A model generated the notes under the pieces. It had not been told where the DNA came from, ran no database searches, and saw nothing but the letters and a program-made list of their open reading frames with translations. The translations under genes were made by a program, and so were the position numbers. Below, one piece after another: positions 9,212 through 61,618 of a stretch of 64,000 nucleotides of DNA. How positions within the stretch are numbered: the stretch's first letter is position 1; every line of letters starts with the position of its first letter. This stretch comes from Hysterangium stoloniferum (taxonomy: Eukaryota; Basidiomycota; Agaricomycetes; Hysterangiales; Hysterangiaceae), in the NCBI GenBank assembly GCA_015178975.1, contig WHVD01000007.1:1-64000 (forward strand). The letters run 5' to 3'.

Positions 9212-10745
9212 CGACATCATATCTCGGTGCATATCAGAGCCATAATATCGACTGGGGAGGGGGCTCACTTCCTGATAGTTCATCTTCAAGTATTAAAATT
9301 GCCCCAGGATATTTCTTAGGAGTTGGGTTGGAAAGGATTGGAATGAAAGTGCTGTTCAACGCAAAGAAGGTTTGGCTGATGGCAAAGCTGACGCTATACA
9401 AGCGAATGGCACGTGGATACGGAGACGACAAGGGATGTAACAAGCTTCTACAAAGGTATATTACGCTGCAAAGACTGGGAATAGTCATTCAAGAGGGCAT
9501 TGATTTGATGAGGTAGGCCACAACATGGCAATCATTAAACACCGGAAATACTTACTCAATGTTTGTAGACCCATATACCCCTTCCGAATTCGAGAACAGG
9601 CATCAGTGGTATTAGGGGGGTTCTATAGTTCAAGTGTTATACAGCGGAGGAAGGGAGGACACACTGACAAACTTATAGCATCTTTGGGTTCGGCTTTCCT
9701 CTGGCGTCCCAGCGCTTGATCGTCGGATGTAGATCGGCGATCAGCTGTAATTACGTCTTCACTTTACAATGCTGTCATAAAATCACCGCTACACACGAAT
9801 GTTAATGAGGTTGCGTCGACATTTATTCTTCAAATCGCCGGATATTTATCATCCCCATGCAATCCACCTCCCTTCCTCCTTAAGCACCTTGCGGTTATCG
9901 TGGGCATTACTTGTCACGTGCGTCAACTGTAGTGGAGCTCACTGCGATCAGAGGCTTCTTTGAATTCTGGGTACAACCGTGGGTCCCAACATCACATCCT
10001 TTTGTCCTGCTCACCAAAACCACAACAGACAAAATTACTCACACCGACTCTCCTTCAATGAATCTCCTATACAGCGTCTCATGTGATGCATCCACCAAGA
10101 TACCTGGTTTTTAAATATTGCTGGTGATGTATTGGAAGTTGTAGTGGACGACATAAACCTAGATATAGCGTCCTTGACATTTCACATCGATGAGAACACG
10201 TCACATTCACTGTGGCGCGATATATTTTCCCTAGAAACCTTTTTCGACGACAGCACACTCCTCGTGGATCATATCAACCAGCTGAATGTGGTTTCCTCCC
10301 TCAATTAGCCCCTCCTAAGGTGTGTTGATATTGTTTTACCTTCCAGCATCATCTCATATCCTACCAGTCTGATTCTGACACACATGTGTCCAAATTCGTG
10401 GTTCCTGTGGTTAGGCAAACGACTAATCGAGGTCACTCTGAAGCTGATAGCTGCATCTTACGACATCAATTCCGCGTGTACCACAGTGTGCAACCTCAAT
10501 ATCATCCCCATTCTCGCCCGTCTTCTTCCACTTTGTGACGCAATGCGTGGCTCAATCACCGATGAAAATATAGGTACTTCCCTTGAACGAGTAACTGTCG
10601 CGGCTCATTCCTTCCTTTGTGTCATTGCCACACTTTTCACCGGTCTGTGCGTACCATCTAATTCAACATCCAGATTAGTGTTGGAGGACCATGACTAGCG
10701 TGCTGATGCTCTTGTTCCGTCCATTCCGCACGCATTATGTCTCTT
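9212..10745 (+). pseudogene. Family A copy 1, 5'-truncated
   Basis: Begins inside exon 2 (first shared base about 9,212), runs to intron 2 (about 9,514-9,569), exon 3, exon 4 and exon 5. Exon 2 reads through QSHNIDWGGGSLPDSSSSS and the conserved KVWLMAKLTLYKRM core. Stops fall in exon 3 (near 9,718), exon 4 (near 10,305) and exon 5 (near 10,696), so it is not functional. It is nearly identical to copy 5 (19,465-21,040), so one duplication produced both. The 5' part is missing because the satellite element abuts it. Confidence 0.75.
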
Positions 10746-10864
10746 GGATACCACTGATACACTATCCGAACCAGGAGGAAGGATAGTACTATTACTCTTT
10801 CCTTCACTCGCCTTGTGGCGATATTTCTCATTTATGTAAAGCTACATACAGTACATATAGTCGC

Positions 10865-11806
10865 TTTTGACCGCCTTTGTGTCCCTGGAAGCTTCTCGTT
10901 GATGCTATACGCGCGTTGATGTCACCCTCAGAAGTTTCACAGAAAACAGCGTATCAGTTAGTTGGGATAGCATGACTACAGTCATTGAATACCAGAAAGG
11001 AACACCCGCAGCTCACTAATCCATGCCGAGGGGTCAGATTCACGCAATCTTCAAAATATATGTTCAATCTCCTGATTGGCTATCGTGGGGCACAACCTCT
11101 GGAATCCAAGGAGGAGCCTTTAAAACGTACAGCGACTGCGTTGGGCGCATTCTATTAAGTATTTCCCTCCATTCGAAACCCCCCCTCGATCCTGGAGCGC
11201 CTCGGTCCCATGGGATCAGATTTGAGGACAAAGACAAGGCGAACATTGCAAAAAAGGTCAACCAGTATCCAAAGGCACTTGTGAGAGCGCTATACGGCAT
11301 AATTGATAGGTAGCGATACAGCAGACGTGCGAGGAAGCCAGAGGCCATGACCACTTGATAGCAAACGGGTCTAAATTAGGTATTGGAAGCCTACCGGTTG
11401 ACACACCTGTATATCCCCGAGATTCTGTGACCGCGGTTTGGAAGAGGAAAATGAAGAGGAAGAAGCCCCAAGGACACGGGATGTCTTGAAGAAGACGAAG
11501 CATCAGTAAGTTGGTATTTGATTCCGGCCGCTCACTGAAGGAATGCCCCGTAATCTAGAATGCGCGCCTGCACATGGTGTAGGGTCTGGAACAGTCTGGA
11601 GATAGCCGTTCTTCCTCCTAGCTCCTGAAGCCATTGTAGTGATGAGTCTTCAATTCGAACAAGTCTTTTCTTTTATTTAAACAGAACCCTTTTGAGCACC
11701 TGGCTGGATTGGTGCTGCTATTACCACAAACACGCAACTGAATGAGACATGACGTCGCCATTGTCGAGGTGAATACGGTCCTCGGCGTCCGAGCACGTTT
11801 TGCCAT
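10865..11806 (-). pseudogene. Family B copy 1
   Basis: Convergent with A copy 1. The start is ATG at 11,806 (MAKRARTPRTVFTS...), followed by the conserved CGNSSTNPARCSK and LKTHHYNGF segments. The middle part reads FAIKWSW...SLSSNLIPWDRGAP (about 11,180-11,370). The 3' exon has lost the FEVILVDKSDVI segment; B copy 4 shares the same loss, supporting common descent. The frame is broken more than once. Function is unknown. Confidence 0.55.
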
Positions 11807-11829
11807 CACTCACCCACCTTTGTTCGATT

Positions 11830-12365
11830 CCTGGGCGATTCAGAGTTCTCGTTAGTATGTATCTAAGGTTCGTTAGCCTCATCGCGTGGGTTTCAAATGA
11901 CCATACTCCAGGTTAGATTCCCAGCCACTCTTGAATGGACAAAGATATATGTACAAAATGCCGGTCAGGCACGTCAAGTGAGATACCCAGCTGTCAGCTT
12001 CTGAACTTGCATATAATAATCAGGTTAATTATGTACTAATACACATACATCAGCAAGTTTTAAAGCATTAAAAAATATGTCCTCTTTACAAAATATATAA
12101 ACAAAAATAGGTAGAAACATGAAAATGCCACGATAAGTCAGACGGGCAGGATATTACATATGATGTTTTCATCATCAACCTTGCGGGTCCAGGACGGGAA
12201 ATGGGGAGCAGAACCATGATACCATTCAATCATGAGGGGTTCCCCATTACTCCGCTCACAAGGACCGGGTAATACTAATTCTAGCGTCTACTTGATTATG
12301 ACTGAATATAGATTACATGCACAATTTGTTAATGTAAACCTGACGGACTCGCCACAAACAGGTAT
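11830..12365. other. Divergent spacer between B and C
   Basis: AT-rich spacer lying 5' of both B (leftward) and C (rightward). It is conserved at 37,750-38,290 and in part at 25,800-26,190, including an alternating AT-rich segment near 12,030-12,110. It probably holds the shared promoter region of the divergent pair (inference). A hydrophobic frame on the minus strand is open in two of the three copies but interrupted here, so I do not call it a gene. Confidence 0.4.
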
Positions 12366-12777
12366 ATTTACTTTCTAGGCCAATTAGCCCAAGTAAAGAA
12401 TTATTAAAATGGGATGCTTGTTGGAAGTCTGAAAGAATTGAACACGAAGCGGATGCTTCCGCTAAATATAGCGGGAGTGGCGGGGCTGTACCTGAGAAGC
12501 GCTGTCATGGATAGCATCCACTGCATTTACATATTCTATCAATTGTCATTTCACTTCTCAACTAACGTAAGAGATTAATTCCCAAAACTCTAGCGCTCAA
12601 GAAGTCGGAAGTTGCCACAATATGCGGTGAAGTTTCATCGAACTATTCATAACTGCCACATCTGCTCTCTGCCGTAGACAATCTGTTGAAGACCAAGTAA
12701 TTGGTGTATACCATAGTTAGAGAACTTGAGCCAATCCTGGAGCATGTATGAATGAAGGAGGTTGAGGTTTGAGGTTA
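12366..12777 (+). pseudogene. Region C copy 1
   Basis: Carries the segment starting PISPSKELLKWDA (after a CTTTCTAG acceptor) with ERIEHEADAS. The following sequence, down to the C-rich end near 12,777, is shared with 22,110-22,430 and 38,320-39,120. The expected next step, exon 1 of an A gene, is absent: at 12,778 the sequence switches to an unrelated insert. Confidence 0.4.
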
Positions 12778-13430
12778 TGTAGAGTGGGCATCGAGGAATC
12801 AGAGGTGTATTGCAATACCCCTTCCATCTCGGCATCACGGTCCATCCTCCCCCCCTTCCCTGCTAGTGCAGAGCTAAGAGGTTCGGGGCCCGTGGCATGC
12901 ACAGGCGAATAAGTATGACTTACAGAATCAAGAGCCGTATTATCGACCTTATCAACATCCGCCCGTCGTCGAACAATTCTCTTGCTCCAAACGGGGATCG
13001 CACTTCGGACTGTGCCTCGTCGGGTGATTGGTTGATTGATTTCGGACATCTTGAGGGAAGTATTTATGTTGAATTACCGGTGTGTTCGTAGCAAAAAAAC
13101 CTAGTGGGTGATCAGTCCACTAGTAGTGTTAATAAAGAATGTTAAATAGGAATCAAAATACTCAAAAAGTGTAAGGGTTCCGCTAAGAAGATGTAGCGTA
13201 ATCCCTCAGAGAGCTCTTGCAAAAGGGAACGAAATGAGTAGGACTAGGTTCCTATTCGAAAGAGACTATCGTAACCATACAAGATATCTACCTATTTATG
13301 ATAATAGTAGTAGAGCCCCGGGCAACAAGTCCAAAACCCCGTGAAACAAACACAATAGTATTCTAAGACACCTCCAGTCATGCGGGCCCAACAGCCGGAT
13401 GCCAAGTCCTCCCTAACCCAAGTCCGCTAC
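12778..13430 (-). mobile_element. Foreign insert, possible LTR-retroelement 5' fragment
   Basis: Unrelated to the C-A-B module. On the minus strand a frame opens at 13,049 with MSEINQPITRRGTVRS and is basic and open for about 90 codons, like the start of a gag-type protein. The sequence at about 13,170-13,380 is shared with 34,158-34,380, begins TGTAAGG and has a TATA-like CTATTTATGATA, so it may be an LTR. No pol region is present. The family cannot be named; this is a broken fossil fragment. Confidence 0.35.
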
Positions 13431-13790: not shown

Positions 13791-13989
13791 AATGTATTAA
13801 ATGAATTCCGAAAGAATTGAACACGAAGGGCATATGTCACTTATCCCCCTGGAATTCGAAAAAGGCGTCCGTTGTTTGTATGAGCTTGTGGCATTCACAG
13901 GAATGAAGGTCACACTGCCAGGCTGGGGGGTTGGGCCTTCATTTGTCCCGGCGCTCAATGGTCAGATGTAGATCGGCCATCAAGTGATT

Positions 13990-14260
13990 GTAACGGGTAT
14001 TTCTTTGCTGTTCTTGAATGACTTACTTTATGCTATCCCAACTATCTAACACATTGCTTTCTTTGACATCTTTGACTGGTATTCTATTTGAGGTAATTCT
14101 CGTTGATATATCGGATTTGATTATAGCCACTGCCACGGCCGACGAATATATGCAACGTGTATATAGCATCAACGAGAATCTGCCAAGCACACAAAGGGTG
14201 AAAGGGGTGACTATATGCGCTCTTGAAATGGCTCAAACTATGTCGCTTTACATAAATTAG
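13990..14260 (+). pseudogene. Family B copy 2, 3' exon only
   Basis: Contains the B intron (with branch site CTAAC near 14,040) and the last exon. That exon reads ILFEVILVDISDLIIATATA, then EYMQRVYSINENLPSTQR. Convergent with A copy 3. The 5' part is replaced by a piece of C and A exon 3 sequence (13,814-13,985). Mirror of 45,093-45,310. Confidence 0.5.
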
Positions 14261-14340
14261 AAATGTTTCTAAAAGGCGAGAGTAATATTACTATCCTGCC
14301 TCCTTGGTTCGGATTATGTGTCAGTGTTATCCAAGAGAAA

Positions 14341-16268
14341 TTATGACATATCGGACGGAATGGATGGAGCAAGAGCATCGGCAGACCAGCCATGGTCCTC
14401 CAACACTGATCTGGTGTTTGAATTAGATGTTGCGCAGACACTGGTGAAAGGTGTGGCGATGACACAAAGTAAGCCCTGAGCCGCGAGGAGTAATGCTTCA
14501 AGAAAACCGAGGTATTGATCGTCGAGTGAGCCACGCATTGCCTCACAATGTGGGAGAAGACGAGGGAGAATGGCAATTATATCCAGGTTTCGCACTGTGC
14601 TACAAGCGGATTCGATGTCGGAAGATCCAGCGATCAGGTTCAGAGTGACCTCAATTAGTTTGTCTCCTGACCAGACGAGGTTCACATTTGGACTTGGGTG
14701 TGTCAGAATCAGACTGGTATGATATTTTCCAGGGCGGATATTAGATGATGCTGGAAGGTAAACCACTCTCAACATACCGTAGGAGGGGCTCAATGAGTGA
14801 ATGGACCACATTCAGTTGTTTGATGTGATGCGTGTGAAGCGTTCTGTTGCCGAAGAAGGTTTTCAGATCCGAGATACCATACCACAATGAATACGTTGTG
14901 TCCATATCCATAATAAGAGTCAGGGACGCTATATGGTGGTTTGTGTCAGCCACTATAACCTTCAATACATCTCCAGCAATATCTCGAAACCAGGCATCTT
15001 CGTGAATGCAACGCACCAGAAGCTGCATAGGAGATACAAGCAAGGAACGTCGATGTGAGTAATTGTGTCTGTTGTGGTTTTGGTGGGCAGGATGAAATGA
15101 TGTGATGTCGCGACGCACGGTTGTACCCAGAATTCAATGCAACCTCTAATCGCAGTGAGCTCCTTTACAGACAGTTGCCGCACGTGGCAAGTTTGGTCCA
15201 CGATATACTCAAGCTGGAGGAGGAGGCAGGTAGGTTTACAAAAGGATGATAAATATCCGGCGATTTGTAGAATGAATGCCGACGCAACTTCTTTCAGGTT
15301 GGTGTGTAGCGGTGATTTGATGACCGCATTGTAAAGCGAAGACGTAATTGCAGTTGATGGCCGATCTCTATCTTCCCATCGAGCGCCGGGACACAAATTG
15401 AAGGCCGAAGCCAAATATGCCATAAGCTTGGTAGTTTTTCTCCGCCGTATAACACTTGAACTCCAGAACAGTTCTGAGACAAGTGACGCCTGTTGTCGAA
15501 TTTGACGCGGGTAAGTGGGTCTATAAAGGTGAGTATTTTGAGTGTATTCAATGATTGGCGCTGAAGTATCCCCACCTCATTAAGTCGATGGTCTCTTGAA
15601 TTACTATTCCGAGCCTTGGAGGAGTGAGATGCTTGCGTATTAACCTTATAAAGGCCCCGTCGTTTCCGTACACCATTCGCTTGTATATCATCAACTTTGC
15701 CATCAGTGCAGCTGTCTTTGCGTTGTGAAGCACAGTCCTCCCAACCCTTTCCAAACCGACTCCACAGTAATACCCGGGGCTAATTTCCAAACTTGATGAT
15801 GAGCTAGCCGGCGATGAGACAACTCCCCAATCTATGGCACGCCTACGGTATGGGTTGAGTTTGGATGTAGCGTTGGTGGAGCTCGCTCGAATTTGAATAT
15901 TATTCGGTGGGTCATGGCAATTTCTCTCTCCTTCCCACTGAAAACATCCGGTATGTGAACAGTCTTTAATAAAAAGGACGTTTCGTTTGCGCACCCATTC
16001 CTCCACACTAACTTCCACGTCTTCTTCCGACAGTTCTATGTGCTGGTCGTCATCATGTGCTCGGTAACATAAACAGTGTCCATGTTCGAGACCGCTACAT
16101 CGCTTTCGAAGCTTCATCCGGGATATTTCCCTCTTTCCCGTGTCATCAATCTCCTGTCGCTCCATCCTCAATACAGCCGGGGAAACCAAGGGTTGTAGCC
16201 AGTCAACCTCTTGGAGGAGGGATAGGACATCCTGCCCCACTCGGAGATATCTCGTTGGAAGTTGACAT
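14341..16268 (-). pseudogene. Family A copy 3, full-length but frameshifted
   Basis: ATG at 16,268 (MSTSNEISPSG...). The early frame is shifted before LLQEVDWLQPLVSPA. From there, exon 1, intron 1 (57 nt, free of stops and a multiple of three here) and exon 2 stay open as one frame to about 15,550. Exon 3 spans about 15,490-15,130, exon 4 about 15,030-14,780 and exon 5 about 14,730-14,341, ending ...SIPSDMS and a stop. Intron 3 uses the phase-0 GTACAA donor. It would encode about 560 residues if unbroken. Mirror of copy 15 at 43,057-44,980. Confidence 0.7.
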
Positions 16269-16970
16269 TGGTGGGTAGCAGCCGTACTCGTACCGAGAGG
16301 CAATGCTGCGCTTTGAAGCTGAAGTTAGACCGAGAGTCGGTTTCCAGGCATAGCATTGTGGCCGTGGTCCGCAGGATACACACCGTTTAATCCCTTCTTT
16401 GTACCCAACTTGAAGTCCCACCTATCCTTCTTGAATAATGCAGCCAGATTATTCTCAAGTTACCTTACCATCTTTACACATATTCCTCCCACTTCGTTAG
16501 ATCATCTCCCGCAGAAAACACACATGGCAGCTGAGAATAAATTGACGGGTCGTCACCGTGCATTGTGCTACCTTCCGAGTTCCTTAGTGCCAGATTTCAG
16601 TGCAATCCAGCTTTCCCGTCAGAAGTGACATCTCCACGAATAGAATATGTCAGTGCAGTGGGCGCTATCCATGGCAGTGCTTATTAGGTACAGCCCCAGG
16701 CGCTCTCGACTCTGGCTATATCTAACGGAACTCCACGCTTCGTGTTCAATTATTTCATAATGGCAACGAGGAATCCATTCCAACAAGTCATTACTGATTC
16801 TAATGGGCGTCAACCCTGACTATCCGTCTTTGCGCCGACTCCGTCAGGCTTTTATCAACAAATTGTGCGTGTAATAAATATTCAGTGGCTATTCATTACA
16901 CGCTAGTCTTATCATTACCCTGACCTTCTCAGTAAACTAATTCGTCCCAGGCTCACCTTATTTATCAAGC
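16269..16970 (-). pseudogene. Region C copy 2
   Basis: Minus-strand frame at 16,813-16,619 reads MTPIRISNDLLEWIPRCHYE then SVRYSQSRERLGLYL and STAMDSAHC. Further down, near 16,400-16,360, is KRCVSCGPRPQCY, a Cys-x2-Cys stretch at the same place in other C copies (KRCVRCIKYRHN at about 34,880). Exons cannot be joined with confidence. Direct duplicate at 26,968-27,650. Confidence 0.4.
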
Positions 16971-16984
16971 ACTTTGAGAGGTCG

Positions 16985-17330
16985 CGACGCATGGTTGTAT
17001 CTAGATTTCAATGCAGCCTCTGATCACAGTGAGCTCCACTGCAGATAGTTGACGCAGGTGGCAGATGTTTTCTACAATACCCGCAAGGTCGCGGAGGAGG
17101 AAGGGAGGCTGAATACATGAGGATGATAAATATCCCGCAATTTGTAGAATAAATGCCGATGCAACCTCATCCACGTTGGTGTGTAGCGGTGATTGTATGA
17201 CAGCATTGTAAAGCGGTGACCTAATTGCAGTTGATGCCCGATCTGTATCTTCCCATTGAGCGCATCTGTCAAGGGTTATAGGGAGGAATCCGACGACACA
17301 CATTGCCATCGCCGATGTTGTGGCATCACC
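16985..17330 (-). pseudogene. Family A copy 4, exon 3 fragment
   Basis: Minus strand reads CAQWEDTDRASTAIRSPLYN, LHTNVDEVASAFILQIAGYL and HLRQLSAVELTVIRGCIE, most of exon 3. It is joined directly to C copy 2 at about 16,980, so exons 1-2 and 4-5 are missing. Mirror of 42,010-42,345. Confidence 0.6.
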
Positions 17331-17464
17331 CTTAATGTATAAAAAATGGCTTTCGTTCTACAACTGCAAATGTTGGTAAGATGTGGATTTCGAGACGAAA
17401 GGGATGCATAGGATATATATCACGCATCTGAATTGTGTGTGTGAGAGCGGCATGAATTTACTTG

Positions 17465-17935
17465 ATCATAAGTGTAGTCGATTTTTTATCGGATGATGAC
17501 CTCGACAACGCTGGTGGTTTTCCAGCAAGGAATCCGAAGAACGACCCCCCAAAGATACAGAATCTTGAATATCTTGAACGAGGCGACGTTTCTCATTGGC
17601 CAAGTCTCTCTTTTATCCAAAATGACACTCTTTGACCACCTGGCTAGCGCAAAGTAGAAACATTTCTTGCATTGTCCTAATAAATAGGTTCCTTGGCGTC
17701 CGCGCCTCTTTCGACATCTCTCACCGACCATTGCACGATCTCCATGTTGGCACTCACTATATCCGCCGTTGTAATAGAAAACAGTCACACGCCGGCGGAT
17801 AAACGTAGGAAGACTTTCTTCCTCCATTGCGTGGTGATCGGTCGATTTATCCCTTTCGTATGTCCTTCTAGATATAATAATATCAGGTGAAGGCACACAA
17901 GGTCGACTCCCTCGGCTACAAGACCACCAGCCACT
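17465..17935 (-). pseudogene. Family B copy 3, 5' fragment
   Basis: Minus strand has a diverged equivalent of the B amino-terminal region (near 17,700-17,650) and the part corresponding to SDKKSTT (about 17,480-17,500). The first 230 bp mirror 41,640-41,870. The frame is interrupted. Confidence 0.35.
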
Positions 17936-19089: not shown

Positions 19090-21040
19090 ATGTCAACTTC
19101 CAACGAGATAACTCTAAACAGGCAACATATAATACCACTCCTACAAGGGGTTGAGTGGCTACAACCCTTGGTTTCACCGGCTATATTGAGGGTAGAACGA
19201 CAGGATATCAATGAAACGAGAATGCGGGAAAGATTCCAGATGAAACTTCGAGAACGATGGAGCTGTCTGGAACATGGGCAAGGTTTATTTTACCGAGCAC
19301 CTGAAGACGATGAGCACATACCACTGTCTGAAGAAGACGTGGAAGTGTGGGTGGAAGAATGGGTGGGCAAAATGAAATATGCTTCTCACATACACACTTG
19401 ATAAACCTCATGCTTTCAGTGCCAAGGAGAGAGAAATTGTCATGACCCCCCGACAATTATTAAGATGCGAGGGGGGTCCACCAACACGACATCATATCTC
19501 GGTGCATATCAGAGCCGTAATATCGACTGGGGAGGGGGCTCACTTCCTGATAGCTCATCTTCCAGTATTAAAATTGCCCCAGGATATTTTTTAGGAGTCG
19601 GTTTGGAAAGTATTGGAATGAAAGTGCTGTTCAACGCAAAGAAGGTTTCGCTGATGACAAAGTTGACGCTATACAAGCAAATGGCGCGTGGATACGGAGA
19701 CAACAAGGGTTTTAACAAGCTTCTACAAAGGTATATTACGCTGAAAAGACTGGGAATAGTCATTCAAGAGCATTGATTTGATGAGGTAGGGCCACAACAT
19801 GGCAATCATTAAACACCGAACATACTTAGTCAATGCTTGTAGACCTATATACCCGCTCCGAATTCGACAACAGGCATCAGTGGTATTAGGGGGGTTCTAT
19901 GGTTCAAGTGTTATACAGCGGAGGAAGGGAGGACACACTGACAAACTGATAGTATCTTTGGGTTCGGCTTAGTCTGGCGTCCCGGCGCTCGATCGTCGGA
20001 TGTAGATCGGCGATCAGCTTCAATTACGTCTTCACTTTACAATGCTGTGATCAAATCACCGCTACACACGAACGTTAATGAGGTTGCGTCGACATTTATT
20101 CTTCAAATCGCCGGATATTTATCATCCCCATGCATCCACCTCCCTTCCTCCTTAAGCACCTTGCGCTTATCGTGAACATGACTTGTCACGTGCGTCAACT
20201 GTCTGTAGTGGAGCTCACTGCGATCAGAGGCTTCATTGAATTCTGAGTTCAACCGTGCGTCCCAACATCACATCCTTTTGTGCTGCTCACCAAAACCACA
20301 ACAGACAAAATTACTCACACCGACTTTCCTTCTATGAATCTCCTATACAGCTTCTCGTGTGTTGCATCCACCAAGATACCTGGTTTCGAAATATTGCTGG
20401 TGATGTATTGAAAGTTGTAGTGGACGACATAAACTTAGATATAGCGTCCTTGACATTTCACACCGATGAGAACACGTCACATTCACTGTGGCGCGATATA
20501 TTTTCCCTAGAAACCTTCTTCGATGACAGCACACTCCGCATGGATCATATAAACCAGCTGAATGTAGTTTCTTCACTCATTGAGCCCTTCCTAAGGTATA
20601 TTGAGATTGTTTTACCTTCCAGCATCATCTCATATCCTCCCCATCACAATATCCTACCAGTCTGATTCTGACACACATGTGTCCAAATTCGTGGTTCCTG
20701 CGGTTAGGCAAACGACTAACCGAGGTCACTCTGAAGCTGATAGCTGCATCTTACGACATCAGTTCCACGTGTACCACAGTGTGCAACCTCAATATCATCC
20801 CCATTCTCGCCCGTCTTCTTCCACTTTGTGGCGTGGATCAATCACCGATGAAAATCTCGGTGCTTCCCTTGAACGAGTAACTGTCGCAGCTCATTCCTTC
20901 CTTTGTGTCATCGCCACACCTTTCACCGGTCTGTGCGTACCATCTAATTCAACATCCAGATTAGTGTTGGAGGACCATGAATAACGTGCTGATGCTCTTG
21001 TTCCATACATTCGGCACGCATTATGTCTCTTGGATAGCAC
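19090..21040 (+). pseudogene. Family A copy 5, full-length, broken in exon 3
   Basis: ATG at 19,090. Exon 1 19,090-19,362 is open (MSTSNEITLNRQHIIPLLQG... to VEEW). Intron 1 19,363-19,419 (57 bp). Exon 2 19,420-19,785, intron 2 19,786-19,842, exon 3 from 19,843. A short deletion near 19,970 shifts exon 3 and a second occurs in exon 5 near 20,830. The intron 3 donor is also altered (near 20,245). Exon 4 begins at about 20,345 (LLVCCIHQD). Not functional. Close duplicate of copy 1. Confidence 0.7.
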
Positions 21041-22574: not shown

Positions 22575-24554
22575 ATGTCGACTTCAAACGAGAGGACTCT
22601 GAGCAGCAACGATGTCATACGGGCCGAATGCCTCCTACAAGAAGTTGAGTGGCTGCAACCCATGGTCTCCCCAGCTGCATTGAGCGCAGAAGAACGGGAA
22701 GAGAGATTTGACGCGGTGAGAAGGGAAAGATTCCGGGTAAAGCTTCGAGACCGATGGAACTGTATCGAAGATGGGCATGGTTTGTGTTATCGAGGTCCCG
22801 AAGACGACGAGCATATACCACTGTCTGAAAAAGACGTGGAAGTTTGGGTTGAGGAATGGGTGCGCAAAATACAATAGCCTTTCATGTACACTGTTGACAC
22901 ACTGGACGCTTTTAGTGCCTAGGAGAGGCACATTGTCAAGACCCACCGACTATTATTAGAAAGCGAGGTAGATCCACCAACACGACATCGAACATGAGTC
23001 CATATCGCAGTCATAATAACATCGACTGGGGAGTGGTTTCACTGGCTGATAGCTCGTCTTCAAGTGTTGAAATTAGCCCCGGGTATTACCTAGGAGTTGT
23101 CATGGACAGGATTGGGATGAAAATGCTTTACAGCGCACAGAGAGCTTCGCTGATGGCAAAGTTGATGATATACGAGGGAATAGCCCGTGGATATGGAAGC
23201 AACAAGGCCTTTAACAAGTGTCTACAGAAGTATCTCACTCTGCCAAGACTGGGAACGGTAATTCAAGAGACCATCGATTTGATGAAGTAGGGATACAACC
23301 ACGTCAACCATTCATTACTCAACATACTCACGTCTTTCTAGACCCACCTATCCCCTTCGAATTAGACGACAGGCGTGGGTGGTCTTAAAGGAGTGGACGT
23401 ACTTACACCGGATATGGTATTCAAGTGCTAAACACCGGAGAAACGGACTTCAGACTGCCACGCTTATGACACATTTGGCTTTGGCCTTCCTCTGGTGTCC
23501 CGGCGCTCGATGGTCAGATGTAGATCGGCGATCAACTTCAATTACGTCTTCCCTTTACAAGGCTGTCATCAGATCACCACTACACACCAACGTGGATGAG
23601 GCTGCGTCCACATTCATTGTACAAATCGCCGAATATCATTCATCATCTTTTCCTTGTCCAAATTTCCTCACCAGTGACCTTTGGTATATCGTGGAACAAA
23701 TCTCCCACGTGCGTCAACTGTCTGCAGTGGAGCTCGCTGCGATCAGAGTTTACATTGAATTCTGGTTAAACCCGTGCGTCGCGACATCACATTATTGCAT
23801 CCTGCCCACCAAAACCAGAACAGACAAAATTACTCACACCGAATTTCCTTCTTTGAACCTCCTATAAGGATTCTCGTGTGTTGCATCCACCAAGATTCCT
23901 GGTTTCGAAGTGTTGCTGGAGATTTATTGAAGCTTATTTTAGACGACGCAAGCCTCCATCTAGCAACATTGACACTTCGTATCGATGAGAACATGTCAAA
24001 TTCACTTGTTCGCCGTATCTGCTACCTAGATACCTTCTTCGATGACAGCACGCTTCGCACGGATCATATCAACCAGCTGAATATGGTTTCTTCGTTCATT
24101 GAACCCCTCCTAAGGTATGTTGACAATGTTTGACCTTCAAGCACAATCTCATATCCGCCCATTCAAATATCCTACCAGTCTGATTATGACACACCCGAGT
24201 GAAACCTTTGCTCTCCTCTTTTCAGGCAGGACAATAATCGAGGTCACTTTGAAGCTGATAGCTGCATCTCCCGACATCGAATCCGCGTGTACCATAGTGC
24301 GCAGCCTCAATATAATCGACATTCTCGCTCGTGTTCTTCCACATTGTGACTCAATGCATTGCTCAATCAACGATCAATACTTCGGTGGCCGCGTTGAAGG
24401 ATTTTACCTCGCGTCGCATTCCTTCCTTTGTGTCATCGCCACGCCTTTCACCGGTGTGTGCGTAACGTCTCACTCAAGCTCCCGATCCGTGTTGGAGAAT
24501 CATGGTTGGTCTGCCGATGCTCTTCTTCCATCCATTACGCACAATATATCATAA
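22575..24554 (+). CDS. Family A gene, intact copy 6 (566 aa)
   Basis: Five exons: 22,575-22,859, 22,916-23,286, 23,342-23,764, 23,869-24,114, 24,179-24,554 (285, 371, 423, 246 and 376 nt; total 1,701, i.e. 566 codons plus stop). Donors are GTGCGC, GTAGGG, GTTAAA and GTATGT; all acceptors end in AG; introns are 56, 55, 104 and 64 bp. Phases are 0, 2, 2, 2 and every junction keeps the frame. The start is in context CACCAATG and begins MSTSNE. Exon 1 is acidic (VEVWVEEW end), exon 2 has a Ser cluster and LMAKLMIYEG, exon 3 has RWSDVDRRSTSITSSLYKAV and HVRQLSAVELAAIR, exon 5 has EVTLKLIAASPDIESACT and FLCVIATPFTGVCVTS. No signal peptide, membrane span or known catalytic motif is seen; the protein looks helical and cytosolic or nuclear (inference). 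B copy 5 is convergent, 137 bp beyond the stop. Function unknown. Confidence 0.8.
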
Positions 24555-43056: not shown

Positions 43057-44980
43057 ATGTCAACGTCCAACGAGATAGCTCCGAGTGGTCAGGATGTCCG
43101 ATCCCTCCTCCAAGAGGTTGACTGGCTACCTTGGTTTCCCCGGCTGTAGTGAGGATGGAACGACAGGAGATCGATGACACAGTAATGAGGTAAATATCCC
43201 GGATGAAGCATCGAGAGTGATGTAGCTGTCTCGAACATGATCACTATGTATGTTGCCGAGTACATGATGACAACCAGCACATAGCACTGTCAGAAGAAGA
43301 CGTGGAAGTTGGTGCGGAGGAATCTGTGCGCAAACGAAACATCCATTTTTTGGTGACTGTTAGCAGACCGGATGTTTTCAGTTCTAAGGAGAGAGAAATT
43401 TCCATGACGGACCGAATAACATTCACATTCGAGGGAGCTCCACCAACGCCACATCCAAACTCAGCCCATATCGTAGGCGTGCCATAGACTGGGGAGTTGT
43501 CTCATCGCCGGATAGCTCATCATCGAGTCTGGAAATTAGCCCCGGGTATTACCGTGGAGTCGGTTTGGAAACGGTTGGGAGGACTGTGCTTCACAACGCA
43601 AAGACAGCTGCACTGATGGCAAAGTTGATGGTATACAAGCGAATGGTGCACGAACACGACAGGGCCTTTAAAACGCTAATACGCAAGCAACTCACTCTGA
43701 GAAGAATAGGAATAGTAATTCAAGAGACCATCGACTTAATGAGGTGGGGATACTTCAGCGCCAATCATTAATACACTCAAAATACTCACCTTTCTAGACC
43801 GACCTACCCCCGTCAAATTCAACAACAGGCGTCAGTTGTCTTAGCGGAGTGCTGGAATTCTTTTGTTTTACGGCGGAGGAACGAAGGTCAGCGTATGACA
43901 TATTTGGCTTATGTCTTCTACTGGTGTCCCGGCGCTCGATGGGAAGATAGAGATCGGCCATCAACTGCAATTACGTCATCGCTTTACAATGCTGTCATCA
44001 AATCACCGCTACACACCAACCTGAATGAGGTTGCGTCGGCATTCATTCTACAAATCGCCGGATATTTATCATGCCCATGCTATTCACGTACCTACCTCCT
44101 CGCCGAGCTTGGGTATATCGTGGAACAAACTTGCCGCGTGCGTCAACTGTCTGTAGAGGAGCTCACTGCGATTAGAGGTTGCATTGAATTCTGGGTACAA
44201 CCGTGCGTCGCGACATCACATCATTTCATCTGGCCCACCGAAACCATAACAGACAAAATTACTCACATCGACTTTCCTTGCTTGGATATCTTATGCAGCT
44301 TCTGGTGCGTTGCATGCACGAAGATGTCTGGTTTCGAGATATTGCTGGAGATGTATTGAAGGTTATAGTGGCTGACACAAACCACCATATAGCGTCCTTG
44401 ACTGTTATTATGGATATGGACACAACGTATTCATTGTGGTATTAGATCTCGGGTCTGCAAACCTTCTTCGGCAACAGCACGCTTCACACGCATCACATCA
44501 AACAACTGAATGTGGTCTATTCACTCATTGAGCCCCTCCTACGGTATGTTGAGAGTGGTTTACCTTCCAGCATCATCTAATATCCGCCCTTGAAAATCTC
44601 ATACCAGTCTGATTCTGACACACCCAAGTCCAAATTTGGCCCTCCTCTTGTCAGGAGACAACCTAATTGAGGTCACTCTGTCCCTGCTCGCTGGATCTTC
44701 CGACATCGAATCCGCTTGTAGCACAGTGCGAAACCTGGATATAATTGCCATTCTCCCTCGTCTTCTCCCACATTGTGAGGCAATGCGTGGCTCACTCGAC
44801 GATCAATACCTCGGTTGTCTTGAAGCATTACCCCTCGCGGCTCAGTCCTTACTTTGTGTCATCGCCACACCTTTCACTGGTGTGTGCGCAACATCTAATT
44901 CAAACTCCAGATCAGTGTTGGAGGACCATGGATGGTCTGCCGATGCTCTTGCTCCATTCATTCCGTCCGATATGTCATAA
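43057..44980 (+). pseudogene. Family A copy 15, full-length, broken early
   Basis: ATG at 43,057 (MSTSNEIAPSGQDVRSLLQE). Exon 1 is shifted by a short deletion near 43,130. Exon 2 is disrupted in its first third but open from 43,565 (VGRTVLHNAKTAALMAKLMV). Exon 3 is open from 43,895 to 44,190. Intron 3 has a GTACAA donor and a TTATGCAG acceptor (phase 0). Exon 4 has a stop near 44,443. Exon 5 ends ...IPSDMS at 44,980. Mirror of copy 3. Confidence 0.65.
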
Positions 44981-47340: not shown

Positions 47341-48235
47341 TGGTCGAATTGAAGACTCATCACTACAATGGTTTTGAGCGCTGGGAGGAAGACGGCGATG
47401 CTCCATATCCACCACATCAAGGCGCATGCTATATTACGGGGACTTCCATCCGTGAGCCGGGAAGATCAAATATCAACTCGCTCATTCTTCTTCTTCTTCA
47501 AGACATCCCGTGTCCTTGGTGCTTCTTCCCCTTCATATTCCTAGCTCAAGAATTACGCGACAAAAATCAAATACACTTGTGATGAAGGATATGCAAGCCG
47601 CGGTCACAACATATGGGTCATTACATACGTGTCTCCCGGCAGGATTTGGTATATCTAATTTAGAACCGTTTGCCATCAGTCGTCATGGCATCTAAATTCC
47701 TCTCAATCTCCTGTATCGCTAAGCATCAGTTATAGCTGTACCCGGTCTCAAAGTGCTTTCGGGTGCTCATTTGGCCTTCTTTGGAATATTCTCGAATTTG
47801 CCTGTTTCAAGTAGGATCCCATGGGAGCGAGGCGCTCACCCATCGGGTCAAGGTTTCGAACGGAGAAAAATACTTTATGAAATCCGCCTAACGCCGTCCG
47901 TGTACCTTGTACAGCCCCCTTCCTTTATTCCAGAACTTTGTGCCTCATGACGGCGAATAAGGATATTGAATGTATGTTTTGAATACTAGATGAAACTGAC
48001 CGAGATAATCGTTGCCCTCGAGTAGGGAGTGATTGTTGCGGGTGGTTTTTTGTCTTCTTCAATGACTTGCTTCATGCCATCTTAACCGACATGCTGCTTC
48101 TTTGAGACTTCGGAGCAGTATTCTATTTGAAGTGATTCTAGGTGATAAATTCCATCTGATTCTGCGACTACTATCCACGAATATATACAAGGTGAATATA
48201 GCATCAAGAGAAGCTGCCAAGCATACAAAGACGGT
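47341..48235 (+). pseudogene. Family B copy 14
   Basis: Starts at VELKTHHYNGFERWEED (47,340), lacking the amino end. Continues with LLQDIPCPWCFFPFIFLAQE, AVTTYGS, the FAISRHGI region and LLIWPSLEYSRICLFQ-type reading, IPWERGAHPSGQGFERRKIL (47,810-47,870), then the last exon near 48,120-48,235. Multiple frame breaks. Convergent with A copy 17. Confidence 0.45.
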
Positions 48236-48259
48236 ACAAAGTGGCTATATGCGCTCTTA

Positions 48260-50046
48260 AATTGGGTGAATGGATCCCTGATTGAGCCACACATTGCGTC
48301 ACAATGGGGAAGAAGACGAGTGAGAATGGAGATTATATTAAGGCTGCGCACTGTGGCGCACGCGAATTCGATATCGGAAGATGTAGCTATCAGCTTCAGT
48401 CTAACCTTAATTAGTTTCTCCCCTGACGAGAGGACCCAGAAATCTGGACTCGTGTGTGTCATAATTAGACTGGTAGGATATTTGAGGGCGGATATGAGAT
48501 TATGCTGGAAGCTAAAACATTGTCAACATACCTTAGGAGGGGCTCAATGACCGAAGAAACCACATTAAGCTGGTTGATATGATCCGTGAGAAGCGTGCTG
48601 TCGTCGAAGAAGGTTTGTAGGGCCCAGATACAATCAAAAGTGGGTATGAATCGTCCTCATAGATATGAAGTGTCAATGACGCTATATGGGGTTTTGTGTC
48701 GTCCATTACACGCTGCAATACATCTCCCGCAATATCTCGAAACCAGGCATCTTGGTGCATGCAGCACACTAGGAGCCGTATCTGAAAGTAATGCGAGGAT
48801 CGTCGGTATAGGTAATTTTCTCTGTTATGGTTTTGGTGGGCAGGATGACATGATTTGATGTCGCCACGCACGGTTGTAACAAGATTTCAATGAAACCTCT
48901 GATCGAATTGAGCTCCTCTACAGACAGTTGACGGACTTCGGAGATGTTTTTCACCATATACGCAAATTCGTCAACGAGGAAGGGATATTGATGGCATGAC
49001 ATGTATCGTGCGATTTTCAGAATAAATGTCGACCCAACCTCATCCACGTTGGTGTGTAACGGTGATTTCATTACAGCATTGTAAAGCGATGACGTAATTG
49101 CAGTTGATGCCCGATCTCTATATCCCAAGTGAGTGCCGGGACACCAGTAGAAGGCCGAACCCAAATATATCATAAGGTTGGCGTTGTGACCTCCGTTTCT
49201 CCGCTGTATGACCCATGAACTCCAGAAACCCTCTGAGACCACCGACGCCTGTTCTCGAATTCGAGCCGGGTAAGTGGGTCTAGCAAAACGGGAGTATTTT
49301 GAGTTTATTGAATGATTTTCCTCAAAGTATCCCCACCTCATTAAGTCAATGGTCTCTTGAATTACTATTCCGAGTCTTGGCAGATTGAGATGCTTGCGTA
49401 GGAACCTGTTACAGGCCTTGTCGCCTCCATACACAATTCGCTTGTATATCATCAGCTTTGCCATCAGTGCAGCTGTCTTTGCAGTGTAAAGCACACTCCT
49501 CCCAACCCTTTCCAAACCGACTCTACAGTAATACCCCGGTTCAATAGTAATACTTGAAGATGTCGATGAGCTCTCAAACGGTGAGACCGCTCCCCAGTCC
49601 CCGCCATGACTGTCATATGGGCCGAGGTTGGATGTGGAATTGGTGGATCTACCTCGCATATCAATAATCGTCGGTGGATCATGACAAGTTGTCTCTCCTA
49701 GCAACTGAAAGCGTCCAGTTTTTCAACAGTGTACATGGAAGGCTATCTGATTTTGCGCACCCATTCCTCAACCCAAACTTCCATATCGTCTTCAGACAGT
49801 GGTATATGCTCGTCGTCTTCGGGAACTCGATAACACACACCGTCCCCGTGGTCTATACAGCTTCATCGGTCTCGAAGCTTGACCCGCAATCTTTCCCTTA
49901 CCCCAGCGTCAATGATCTCCTCCCGTTCTTCTGAGCTCAATGCAGCTGGGGGAGACCAATGGCTGTAACCACTCAACCTCTTGTAGGAGGCTTTCAGCCC
50001 GTCCGATATCGTGGCCGCTCAGAGTCGTTTCGTTTGAAGTTGACAT
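48260..50046 (-). pseudogene. Family A copy 17, long open stretch but introns damaged
   Basis: ATG at 50,046. Exon 1 has a frameshift near 49,945. From 49,704 to 48,769 a single frame of 311 codons runs through exon 2, intron 2 and exon 3: the intron lost its stops (reads WGYFEENHSINSKYSRFA) and could be retained. LGETTCHDPPTII at the start shows the usual beginning of exon 2. Exon 4 follows (CCMHQDAWFRDIAGDVL). Exon 5 is truncated near 48,270, where it joins B copy 14. Confidence 0.6.
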
Positions 50047-55620: not shown

Positions 55621-55694
55621 TAAATTAGAAGTATTTATCAAAGACGAGAGTAATATTACTTTTGCTTCGGATAATGTGGCAGTGTTGTCAAAGA

Positions 55695-57545
55695 GAAATT
55701 ATGATATATCGGACGGAATTTATGGAGCAAGAGAATCGGCAGGCCAGCCATGGTCCTCCAACACTGATCTGTAGTTTAAGTTAGATGTTACGCACACACC
55801 GGTGAAAGGTGTGGCAATGACAGAAAGTAAGGAATGAGCCGCAAAGTGTAATTGTTCAAGGGAGGCACCGAGGAATTGATCGCTGATTGAACCACGCATC
55901 GCCTCACAGTGTGGAAGAAGACGAGCGATAATGGGGATTATATTGGGGCTGAGCATTGTGGTATACGCGGATTCGATGTCGGAAGATGCAACTATCAGCT
56001 TCAGAGTAACCTTAATTAGTTCCTCTCCTGACGAAAAGAGACAGTAATTTGGAATCGGGCGTGTCAGAATCAGACTGGTATGATATTTGCTGGCAGGTAA
56101 AACACTCTCAACATACCGTAGGAGGGGCTCAATTAGCCAAGGGACAACATTCAGTTGTTTGATATGATGCGTGCGAAGCGTGATGTCGTCGAAGAAAGTG
56201 TTCACAGCCAAGATACCATCCCACAATGAATACGCTGTGTACTCATCCATCATAAGAGTCAAGGACGCTATACGGTGGTTTGTGTCATCCACTATAACCC
56301 TCAATACATCTCCAGCAATATCTTGAAACCAATCATCTTCGTGAATGCAAGACACGAGAAATCGGGACGCACGGTTGTACCCAGAATGAAATGCAACCTA
56401 TGATGGCAGTGAGCTCCTCTACAGACAGTTTCCGCACGTGGCAAATGCTTTCCACGATATACCCAAGGTTGACCAGGAGGAAGGTACGTTTACAAAAGGA
56501 TGATAAATATCGGGCGATTTGGAGAATGAATGCCGACGCCACCTTATCCAAGTTGGTCTGGAGCGGTGATTTGATTATAGCATTGTAAAGCGATGATGTA
56601 AATTCAGTTGGTGGCAGATCTCTATCTGACCATCGAGCGCCGGTACACTGGTAGAAGGCCTCACTCAAACGCACCATAAGCTTCTCAGTGTGACCTCGGT
56701 TGCTCCACCTTATACAATTTGGATCACCGAGATTCATTGAGACCACCCACGCCTGTTTTTGAATTCGACGCGGGTAAGTGGGTCTAGATAGACGTGAGTA
56801 TTTGAGTGTATGAATGATCGGCGCTATGATATACCTACCTCATTAAGTCAATGGTCTCTTGTATTATGATTCCGAGTCTTGGAAGAGTGAGAGGCTTGAA
56901 TAAGAACCTGTTAAAGGTCCTGTGGTTTCTATACACCATTCGCTTGTATAGCATCAACTTTGCCATCAGTGCAGCTGTCTTTGCACTGTAAAGCACAGTC
57001 TTCCCAACGCTTTCCAACACAAGTCCACAGTAATACCCCGGCTCAATTTTAATACTTGAAGATGTCGATGAGCTCTCATACAGTGAACCCACTCCCCAGT
57101 CCACGTCATGACTATGATGCGGACTGAGGTTGGATGTGGCGGTGGTGGATCTACCTCGCATTTTAATAATAATCGGTGGATCATGACAATTTGCCTCTCC
57201 TAGCCACTGAAAGCGTCCAGTTTGTCAACAGTATGCATTAAAGGCTATCCCATTGTGCGCACATTCCTCAGCCCAAACTTCCACATCTTCTGCAGACAGT
57301 GGTATATGCTGGTCGTCTTCGGGAACTCGATAACACACACCGTGCCCATGTTCGATACAGTTCCATCGGTCTCGAAGCATTACCCGGAATCTGTCCCTTA
57401 TCGCCGCATCAACTACCTCCTCCCCTTCTACTGAGCTCATTGCAGCTGAGGAGACCAAGGGTTGTAGCCACTCAACCTCTTTTAGGAGGCTTTCAGCCTG
57501 TTCGACATCGTCACTGCTCAGAGTCGGTTCGTTTGAAGTTGACAT
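55695..57545 (-). pseudogene. Family A copy 19, almost complete
   Basis: ATG at 57,545. Exon 1 is open (MSTSNEPTLSSDDVEQAESL to AEDVEVWAEE), but one base is missing at the exon 1 end (AATGTGCGC instead of AATGGGTGCGC). Exon 2 is open (57,161-56,835 core: YESSSTSSSIKIEPGYYCGL). Exon 3 is open (56,746-56,400). Intron 3 is mostly deleted; exon 4 starts SCIHEDDWFQDIAGDVLRVI (56,355). Exon 4 and 5 read as one open frame to 55,720 (intron 4 shortened), ending ...WPADSLAP with a stop about five codons early. Probably dead, recently. Confidence 0.65.
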
Positions 57546-59895: not shown

Positions 59896-60690
59896 GAAGG
59901 CCCGAATTGCCTAGTCGCCATCCGACAAACGTTAACTACACTCGTGATCAAATATATTGAATCCGCTCTAACAGAATATCGGTCATATATAGAGGTCTCA
60001 CCCTGCAGGCATTCTTATCTCTACTTTAGAACCGTTTGCCATCAAGTGGTCATGGCATCTACATTCCTATCACTTCCCCTGTATCGCCAAACATCAGTTA
60101 TAGATTATACCGATCTCCAAAGTGCCTTGTGGTGTCCTCTTGACCTTCTGTGCAATTTTCGCGATTGTTATCTTTTCCAGTTGGATCTCATGGGAAAGAG
60201 GCGCTCCAGCGTCAGTCAAGGTGTAAGCCTGGCGCCCCAGTCTTACTCATTCCTTTTGTTCCACTCCTTTGTTCTCATTGTCCTTTTGTTCCACTCCCTT
60301 GTTCCACTCCCTTTGTTCTACCACGTGATCATAGCATATAAAGCCTAGGTAGTTTTCCTTCTCTTACCTTACCGTACGCTGTAACATCCTGTATCTCGTC
60401 TCAGTTCTAGACTATACAACGTGGTCCTGTCAACTCGTGTGACCGCCAGTGATCCCAATTGATGACAGGATTACACAAGGTTTCGAATGGAGAGCAATAG
60501 ATTATGGAATCCGCCCAACGCCGTCCCTGTACGTTTAAAAGCCTCTCCTGTTATTCCAGAGATTTGTGCCTTGTGATGACCGATAAGGAGACTGAACGAG
60601 GATCAAGGAGAAGCTACTACGCACACAAAGGCAGTAAAAGGTGACTATATGCACTCTTGAATTGGATCAAACCATGTAGCTTTACATAAA
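59896..60690 (+). pseudogene. Family B copy 19, split by a solo LTR
   Basis: Middle B segment (ALTEYRSYIEVSPC, LEPFAIKWSWHLHSYHFPCI reading, 60,020-60,085; LDLMGKRRSSVSQG, 60,180-60,220), interrupted by the LTR at 60,222-60,475. It resumes with RFRMESNRLWNPPNAVPVRL reading and a truncated last exon (KEKLLRTQRQ). The LTR went in after B was already degraded or at the same time; order is not resolved. Confidence 0.45.
60222..60475 (+). mobile_element. Solo LTR, family S, copy 2
   Basis: 254 bp. Ends TGTAAGCC...GGATTACA; target duplication CAAGG at 60,217-60,221 and 60,476-60,480, perfect. Longer than copy 1 mainly because of a CCTTTTGTTCCACTCC-type tandem stretch at 60,250-60,320. A TATA-like CATATAAAGCC lies near 60,330. 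Inserted in B copy 19. Confidence 0.85.
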
Positions 60691-60699
60691 TTAGAAAAA

Positions 60700-61030
60700 T
60701 TTCCAACAGGCGAATCAAGTCAAGAGTAATAGTACTATCCTTTTTCCCAGATCGCATAAGGTCTGTCGGTATTATCCAAGAGAAATTATAATATATCGCG
60801 CAGAATGGATGGAACAAGAGCGCCGGCAGGCCAAGTCATAGTCCTCCAGCACTGATATTGTGATTGAATTAGATGTTATTCACACACCGGTGCAAGGTGT
60901 GGCGATGACACAAAGGAAAGAATGCACCATGAGGTTTAATTTTTCATGGCAGTCACCGAGGCCTTGATCGTTGCTTGGGCCGCACATTGAGTTACAATGT
61001 GAAAAAAGACGAGCGAGAATGGGGATGATA
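60700..61030 (-). pseudogene. Family A copy 21, exon 5 only
   Basis: Minus strand: exon 5 with ISSPFSLVFFHIVTQCAAQA-type reading in a shifted frame; HTFHLCVIATPCTGV in the right frame; then the usual end and 3' flank at 60,700. It joins a B fragment at about 61,030. Confidence 0.5.
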
Positions 61031-61618
61031 TGTGTGTATTAGTAGACAATTACATAGATTATTATAGGCAAGTTCAGAAGTTGACAACTGGGTATCTCAT
61101 TGGATGTGCAAGACCTGGATTTTCATCTATACCATTGTCATTTAAAGAGCGGCTGGTGGTCTAAATTGGATTACAGTCGCTTGTAACTGAAGGTGCTGGG
61201 AACCAGAGAAACGTATTCACCCAGACAAGATGTCTCACTCTGTTGACTGTTTGTGGTAATAGGAGCCCAAAATCAGCCCGATGCTCAAAGAGGTTCCGTT
61301 TAAATACAAGAAAAGACTTGTTCCAATTGAAGACTCATCACTGCAATGGTTTTCAGCTCAGGGAGGGAGAATGGCTATCTGAGGTGCTCCAGGCTGTTCC
61401 AGATGCTGGACCATGTCTAGGTGCACATTCTAGATATGGGGACTTCCCTCCGTGAGCCGTCCGGATCAAATACCAATTGACTAATGCTTCGTCTTCTTCA
61501 GGATACCCCGTGTCCTGGGTCCTTCTTCCTCTTCATTCTCCTCCCTCAAGAATTGTCCGACAAAAAATCAACTACATTTGTGATCACAGATATTCAAGCC
61601 GCTGTCACAGAATATATT
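61031..61618 (+). pseudogene. Family B copy 20, cut by a Copia element
   Basis: CVLVDNYIDYYRQVQKLTTG, YLIGCARPGFSSIPLSFKER (61,030-61,160), then LLTVCGNRSPKSARCSKRFR, LNTRKDLFQLKTHHCNGFQL (61,235-61,350), LPQELSDKKSTTFVITDIQ region (61,550-61,600). This copy has an open 61,243-61,455 stretch. It ends abruptly in AGAATAT at 61,618. Confidence 0.5.

What the first reader, a model, noticed from the sequence alone, without database searches (positions are those of the whole stretch)
9212..61618. A 52-kb array of a C-A-B module on both strands
At least 21 A copies, about as many B pieces and 15 C pieces recur in the same relation: C then A in one direction, B facing A tail-to-tail. The relation holds for both orientations and across several subfamilies, so the linked unit itself, about 3.5 kb, has been duplicated. 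It could be a lineage-specific gene cluster under birth-and-death evolution, or an unrecognised mobile element carrying two convergent genes.
Basis: partly seen in the sequence, partly recalled or inferred. Interest (0 to 1): 0.85.

Follow-up and report, generated by a model that had tools for sequence, protein, structure and literature searches.

The report
Hypervariable fungal gene array, mostly pseudogenes
A 52,000-base stretch of what looks like fungal DNA is a tandem family of one gene, mostly broken copies but two intact, whose protein keeps changing at the same few positions, as recognition proteins do when they chase a moving target.

Summary
The array is real: a 4.27-kb unit covers 83% of 9212-61618 and nothing outside. 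"A" is one five-exon gene for a 584-aa protein; about ten copies are near full length, on both strands, and two (22575-24554, 39265-41244) are intact. "C" is its 5' flank and "B" its 3' flank; B shows no sign of coding, so two convergent genes are not supported. Units were duplicated in tandem, then truncated and inverted. No common element ends were seen, but no genome is held, so copies elsewhere are untested.

New: the protein shows strong site-specific diversifying selection (M1a/M2a LRT 105; 15 null simulations at most 7.7). Sites chosen from eight copies are those that differ in three left-out recent pairs, changing 3 to 5.5 times faster than the pairs' non-coding DNA. A fourth pair, with 6 testable sites, shows none. 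Selected sites follow helical spacing; exon 1 shows no signal. Best reading: a birth-and-death cluster of intracellular helical recognition proteins with a variable face. No relative was found in the libraries searched; the recognition role is inferred.

The parts
9212..61618 (.). whole array of the 4.27-kb unit, copies and fragments on both strands
   Evidence: self-BLAST; unit covers 83% of the interval and 0 bases outside
22575..24554 (+). intact gene copy g22, 584 aa; exons 22575-22859, 22916-23286, 23342-23773, 23824-24114, 24179-24554
   Evidence: four GT..AG introns of 56, 55, 50, 64 nt, no internal stop
39265..41244 (+). intact gene copy g38, 584 aa; exons 39265-39549, 39606-39976, 40032-40463, 40514-40804, 40869-41244
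   Evidence: same intron lengths, no internal stop
31464..33423 (-). near-intact copy g31; one in-frame stop at the start of exon 4 and no terminal stop at the usual place
14341..16222 (-). copy g14: exons 2-5 open, exon 1 recovered only in part (its start missing)
43057..44980 (+). broken copy g42: exon 1 frameshift and stops, stops at the start of exon 2 and in exon 4
35000..36950 (+). broken copy g34: stops in exons 1, 4, 5 and a frameshift in exon 3
55699..57545 (-). broken copy g55: deletion across the exon 3/4 junction, stop in exon 5
19090..21011 (+). broken copy g18: frameshifts in exon 3, frameshift and stop in exon 5
48190..50046 (-). broken copy g48: frameshifts in exons 1 and 4, exon 5 truncated; exons 2 and 3 open
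9202..10728 (+). broken copy g9: 5' truncated at the left edge of the array, stops in exons 3-5
   Evidence: no window over threshold in the head of the aligned copies
   Evidence: no window over threshold; frameshifting indels in B comparisons
10927..12781 (+). B running directly into the head of the next unit: evidence for tandem order
   Evidence: unit positions 2923 to 4274 then 1 to 539 in one HSP
37415..38440 (+). second B-to-head junction, duplicated without its A
   Evidence: unit positions 3533 to 286; 89% to 11477-12519
13814..17696 (-). recent segmental duplicate of 41631-45509, inverted
   Evidence: 3,895-bp alignment, 92%
38866..41630 (+). recent segmental duplicate of 22186-24941, carrying the second intact gene
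   Evidence: 93% over 2,770 bp

Best explanation
A tandem, birth-and-death cluster of one intron-bearing gene in a fungal (probably basidiomycete) genome. Shown: the unit (5' flank, gene, 3' flank) was duplicated in tandem, then scrambled by local segmental duplication, inversion and truncation; most copies are broken, two are intact. Shown by site models and a leave-pair-out test: the protein is under site-specific diversifying selection that recurs at the same codons in separate recent pairs, with spacing like that of alpha helices, and with no signal in exon 1. Inferred: the protein is an intracellular helical-repeat (alpha-solenoid-like) recognition protein with a fixed N-terminal part and a variable binding face, and the cluster is a repertoire or reservoir from which new binding specificities arise, in conflict with a changing partner (non-self proteins, invaders, or the partners of an incompatibility system).
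For: Tandem unit and junctions. Two intact 584-aa genes with conserved splice sites. Frame is guarded in the intact pair: g22/g38 have 124 substitutions in 1,704 coding sites of the first splice model with 0 indels and 0 stops, although 4.1% of random substitutions would make a stop; their 1,047 non-coding sites hold 4 indels. Final splice model: 127 in 1,740. g31/g38: 6 of 6 coding indels in frame (the one stop of g31 lies in a stretch then taken for intron). Site model on 10 copies: M1a/M2a LRT 105, omega 4.4 on 9.6% of codons. First splice model: LRT 110, gap-masked 49.9, largest of 15 M1a simulations 7.7; single exons on their own trees significant for exons 2, 3, 4 and 5, not for exon 1. 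g22, g38, g31 alone LRT 29.6. Leave-pair-out: sites chosen from the other 8 copies differ between g22 and g38 at 15 of 26 against 77 of 554 other codons (p 6e-7), g14/g42 16 of 38 against 60 of 431 (p 6e-5), g34/g55 11 of 22 against 67 of 395 (p 6e-4); synonymous-only changes at chosen codons 0 in each. Rates at chosen codons against the pair's own non-coding DNA: 17/63 vs 51/1047, 20/108 vs 148/2304, 23/63 vs 74/903 (first splice model). Autocorrelation of site posteriors raised at lags 1, 3, 4, 7, 8 (permutation p<=0.005) and not at 2, 5, 6, 9, 10, 11, 12. Selected face 134-177 degrees from the hydrophobic face in 6 of the 7 modelled helices that carry sites with posterior over 0.9.
Against: No homologue, domain or fold identified, so recognition is inferred from the selection pattern alone. 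Structure models are poor (pLDDT 53.9 and 55.0); in the alignment behind the first, the starts of the exon-3 rows were misplaced by the aligner. Helix faces rest on these models, and only 2 of 7 helices are significant one by one (p about 0.04). Four of the 21 sites over 0.9 lie in exon 2 in a stretch modelled without helix, and lag 11, also a helical spacing, is not raised. In the fourth recent pair (g18/g9) 0 of 6 testable sites differ, and its coding DNA diverged less than its non-coding DNA (71/1279 vs 110/1304). Held-out fragments mismatch more at selected sites but do not carry significantly more residues unseen elsewhere (20% vs 16%, p 0.17). Over the whole gene the nonsynonymous excess of g22/g38 is only borderline (p 0.052 at kappa 2). 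Gene conversion was not formally tested. Only two copies are intact, most rows are broken genes, expression is unknown. Absence of a signal peptide was judged by eye only.
Confidence: 0.6

Rival explanations
1. An ordinary decaying gene family: copies drift under relaxed constraint, and the omega near 1 simply reflects pseudogenes.
For: Most copies are broken; exons 3-5 have overall omega 1.0-1.2 across all copies used.
Against: Relaxation cannot exceed the neutral rate: chosen codons change about 3 to 5.5 times faster than the pairs' own non-coding DNA, at sites predicted from other copies, and frames are kept in the intact pair.
Confidence: 0.12
2. The same helical proteins act on a host or competitor rather than in self-defence (effector-like), or as a selfish driver; the variable face tracks target proteins of another organism.
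For: Clusters of fast-evolving genes near transposons are typical of such families (general knowledge; reverse transcriptase pieces at 62.2-63.1 kb).
Against: No obvious N-terminal signal peptide in the intact proteins (by eye); organism and life style unknown.
Confidence: 0.13
3. A mobile element carrying the gene, nested in itself.
For: Many copies with sharp breaks, both strands; several heads start near unit position 13-27 with three different upstream sequences.
Against: Breaks scatter over the unit; no base-precise ends, target duplications or terminal repeats recognised by eye at the borders printed (no dedicated search for them was run); direct B-to-head junctions fit tandem duplication; no transposase or other Pfam domain.
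Confidence: 0.08
4. An RNA-recognising helical-repeat family, like restorer-of-fertility PPR clusters, tracking changing organelle or viral RNAs.
For: Same genomic style: clusters, possible pseudogenes, diversifying selection at periodic positions (PMC7380019, passages read).
Against: No PPR or other repeat family hit; selected residues include W, L and F as well as charges, more like a protein interface (interpretation).
Confidence: 0.07

Closest known systems
Fungal NLR sensor repeats, e.g. Podospora anserina hnwd (het-d, het-e, het-r) WD40 family
   Same: Paralogous repertoire with diversifying selection confined to a few surface positions; in hnwd four codons per WD40 repeat at the interaction surface (PMC2873952, passages). 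Fungal NLR C-terminal sensors carry selected residues predicted on exposed surfaces (PMC10197012, passages).
   Different: No NACHT/NB-ARC, WD40, TPR or ANK domain found in the protein; helical rather than beta-propeller by the poor models; tandem array rich in broken copies.
Restorer-of-fertility-like PPR clusters of plants
   Same: Clustered genes, some possible pseudogenes; clustered genes show diversifying selection, strongest at PPR positions 5 and 35 (PMC7380019, passages).
   Different: No PPR motif match in Pfam; different lineage; no evidence for RNA targets or organelle targeting.
Genes of somatic incompatibility in basidiomycetes
   Same: Would need polymorphic non-self recognition loci; a 2021 paper says the mechanisms remain completely unknown and that 3-5 loci are likely (PMC8229728, passages).
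   Different: No genetic link to this locus; only a hypothesis.

Membership tests
Fungal NLR | central NACHT or NB-ARC nucleotide-binding domain | tested here: not met
   no Pfam family at E<=5 for two spliced copies of the first splice model, which lacks 15-17 residues of exon 4
Fungal NLR | C-terminal sensor repeats (WD40, TPR, ANK) with selected surface sites | tested here: inconclusive
   selected sites with helical spacing present but no repeat family matched
Rf-like PPR | tandem 35-aa PPR motifs | tested here: not met
   no PPR hit in Pfam
Transposable element | common precise ends with terminal repeats or target duplications | tested here: inconclusive
   scattered breaks, no shared precise end; read by eye at some of the borders only
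Transposable element | dispersed copies in the genome | not testable with these tools
   no whole genome is held for the window
Transposable element | transposase, integrase or reverse transcriptase in the unit | tested here: not met
   no Pfam hit above cut-off for the unit's protein; B has no coding signal
Birth-and-death tandem gene cluster | tandem paralogues of differing age with intact genes and pseudogenes | tested here: met
   direct unit junctions, recent pairs at 86-93% beside old ones at about 70-81%, 2 intact genes
Arms-race gene family | nonsynonymous rate above the neutral rate at defined sites | tested here: met
   in three of four recent pairs; fourth pair 0 of 6 sites

The most novel reading that the evidence does not exclude
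This is the specificity locus of a fungal non-self recognition or immune system that is not NLR-based: a tandem repertoire of helical receptor proteins, diversified on one face by selection and refreshed from local duplicates and broken copies; possibly one of the unidentified incompatibility loci of basidiomycetes.
Probability: 0.15. Interest if true: 0.88.

Novelty: new variant of a known kind. Interest (0 to 1): 0.64.

Why it matters
Families with hypervariable sites inside a conserved scaffold usually mark the contact surface of a biological conflict. If intact members are expressed, the selected residues name the likely binding face of a protein family with no annotated domain, and the locus becomes a candidate for fungal non-self recognition, whose mechanisms in basidiomycetes a 2021 paper calls completely unknown (PMC8229728, passages). 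The prediction can be tested with population genomes.

Tried and rejected
Known families: Pfam on ten single frames (two weak hits far below cut-off, DUF7571 E 0.077 and TraI_2 E 0.17) and on two spliced proteins (none), PHROGs on four pieces (one weak hit, E 0.047), NCBIfam (none for A), PDB by sequence with one protein and two profiles (best E 0.072, Nup133, not convincing), Rfam at gathering thresholds (none), plasmids with 9212-17000 only (none), viral contigs (none), prokaryote genome contigs (4 pattern matches, none a relative). PADLOC, phage records and metagenomes were not searched. Foldseek against the PDB gave no match at E<=0.001 for either model (best E 0.24 and 0.20), little surprise for models of this quality.

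B as a gene: rejected. The coding-substitution scan flags 16 windows, all on the A strand in exons 1 and 2 and parts of exons 3 and 4, and none in B or the head. It also missed exon 5, which evolves fast, so a very fast-evolving short B gene is not wholly excluded; the frameshifting indels (25 of 27) argue against it.

Inverted match of 42391-42551 with 45503-45659 (71%): first suspected as terminal inverted repeats; it is a head piece of another unit in reverse.

A first splice model (exon 3 to 4 intron of about 104 nt) was wrong: its donor was not shared by all copies. It was replaced by a 50-nt GT..AG intron; the added 15 codons are open in 7 of 9 copies that have them and carry a stop in g31 and g34. 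The simulations, gap masking, single-exon trees, held-out fragments, helix faces and non-coding rate comparison were not repeated.

Rows left out: the site models use 10 of about 23 A pieces, and of those only exons that keep one frame (exon 1: 6 rows, 2: 10, 3: 7, 4: 8, 5: 8); stops and gaps were treated as missing.

Literature: seven answered searches, of which I saw listings, and passages of four papers. Nothing in those listings described this array or protein. That is no proof of absence from print; no search by sequence against general protein databases was possible.
Full report
What the sequence is. The window has few frames over 200 aa (65 frames of at least 100 aa, the longest 311 aa), no tRNA and no held genome. 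It carries short GT..AG introns and reverse transcriptase pieces near the right edge (RVT_2, E 8.7e-15 and 2.1e-23). I read it as a fungal chromosome, probably a basidiomycete; that is inference from intron size and general look, not a test.

Observation. Self-comparison confirms a dense array from 9212 to about 61618. The strongest matches are three recent segmental pairs: 13814-17696 with 41631-45509 inverted (92%), 22186-24941 with 38866-41630 (93%), and 9212-11809 with 19487-22109 (91%); a fourth, 34412-37115 with 55544-58127, is 86-87% alike in two pieces. Older copies are mostly 70-81% alike. A unit of 4,274 bp, joined from 12234-12441 and 22108-26173, explains 83% of the array and none of the flanks.

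Order. B runs straight into the head of the next unit at 10927-12781 and 37415-38440, and, with a different B end, from 46812 down to 45512 and from 29663 down to 28937 on the minus strand. That is head-to-tail tandem order, later broken by inversions and truncations. Other heads have a third kind of upstream sequence, shared by the copies at 26.7, 29.7, 31.2, 52.6 and 56.4 kb. Pieces of A also sit at chimeric joints, for example 42062-42350 and 37139-37407.

The gene. Aligned copies give a five-exon model. With the corrected third intron, copies at 22575-24554 and 39265-41244 are intact: 584 aa each, introns 56, 55, 50 and 64 nt, all GT..AG. The copy at 33423-31464 has one internal stop and lacks the usual terminal stop. 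The other near full-length copies (g9, g14, g18, g34, g42, g48, g55) are broken or incomplete. A scan for coding-type substitutions flags A exons and nothing in B or the head; in four B comparisons 25 of 27 indels break frame. So the evidence is for one gene per unit, not two.

Selection. In the intact pair g22/g38 there are 124 coding substitutions in 1,704 sites with no indel and no stop, and 51 substitutions with 4 indels in 1,047 non-coding sites (first splice model; 127 in 1,740 with the final one). Coding DNA diverged faster than non-coding DNA in this pair (Fisher p 0.013) and by raw counts in g14/g42 and g34/g55, but not in g18/g9. For the whole gene, the nonsynonymous share in g22/g38 is 81% against 73% expected at kappa 2 (p 0.052), so the gene-wide excess is weak; the signal is in particular sites.

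On ten copies M2a beats M1a by LRT 110, or 105 with the corrected alignment, omega 4.4 on 9.6% of codons. Masking codons within six of a gap leaves LRT 49.9; 15 data sets simulated under M1a gave at most 7.7. Exons on their own trees: exon 1 LRT 0.4, exon 2 15.7, exon 3 42.5, exon 4 17.3, exon 5 59.6, which weakens a tree-error or recombination explanation but does not exclude gene conversion. In exon 1 no site passes 0.9 and 2 of 95 pass 0.5. The three least damaged copies alone give LRT 29.6.

A less circular test: sites were chosen from eight copies and checked in the left-out pair (the tree came from all ten). For g22/g38, 15 of 26 chosen codons differ in amino acid against 77 of 554 others (p 6e-7); for g14/g42 16 of 38 against 60 of 431 (p 6e-5); for g34/g55 11 of 22 against 67 of 395 (p 6e-4). 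None of the chosen codons shows a synonymous-only change, against 17, 22 and 21 elsewhere. In the earlier run the fourth pair, g18/g9, had 0 of 6. The chosen codons change 0.27, 0.19 and 0.37 per site where the same pairs' non-coding DNA changes 0.05, 0.06 and 0.08 (first splice model). That is more than neutral drift should give. Nineteen held-out fragments, some of them broken exons of the same ten genes, are also far more variable at these sites (mean mismatch 0.78 over 134 residues against 0.36 over 1,190), though not significantly richer in residues unseen elsewhere.

Geometry. Two AlphaFold models of in-window frames are almost all helical but poor (pLDDT 53.9, 55.0). Without using them, the site posteriors of exons 2-5 are correlated at spacings 1, 3, 4, 7 and 8 and not at 2, 5, 6 or 9-12, much as one face of alpha helices would give, although spacing 11 is then missing. 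Of 17 modelled helices scored, 7 carry sites over 0.9; in 6 of these 7 the selected face points 134-177 degrees from the hydrophobic face (first-model posteriors). Four of the 21 sites over 0.9 lie in exon 2 in a stretch modelled without helix. This fits, but does not prove, an alpha-solenoid with a variable surface.

Mechanism proposed. Tandem duplication and local rearrangement make new copies; most decay; a few stay open and are pushed to change at contact residues. The exon 1 part would carry the common function and the helical part the specificity. The partner is unknown. Comparable patterns are known from fungal NLR sensor repeats (PMC2873952, PMC10197012; passages) and plant Rf-like PPR clusters (PMC7380019; passages); the protein here matches neither family by Pfam.

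Limits. No relatives outside the window, no expression data, no species name, no population data, and a home-made site model on ten rows, most of them broken genes. The recognition role is an inference from selection and periodicity alone.

Noticed in passing
window 8184-9141 and 5828-6381: A minisatellite of about 70 bp (higher-order 208-209 bp) just left of the array, with an inverted, about 80% alike copy 2-3 kb away.
   Followed up: partly
window 62210-63113, minus strand: Pieces of a Copia-type retrotransposon at the right edge; RVT_2 matches in two frames. Neighbouring frames at 61817-62161 and 63532-63999 gave no Pfam match; they look like Copia ends to me, from memory only.
   Followed up: no
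window 718-4126, plus strand: Gene-like open frames left of the array (up to 251 aa stop to stop) without any Pfam match at E<=0.01; not compared with A.
   Followed up: no
window 51513-51703 and 54443-54626: A 79% repeat that is not part of the unit.
   Followed up: no
window 60255-60318: Short 13-bp tandem repeat between two B fragments.
   Followed up: no
window 34103-34412: The minus-strand copy g31 and the plus-strand copy g34 stand head to head with about 300 bases between their heads, a possible shared promoter region.
   Followed up: no
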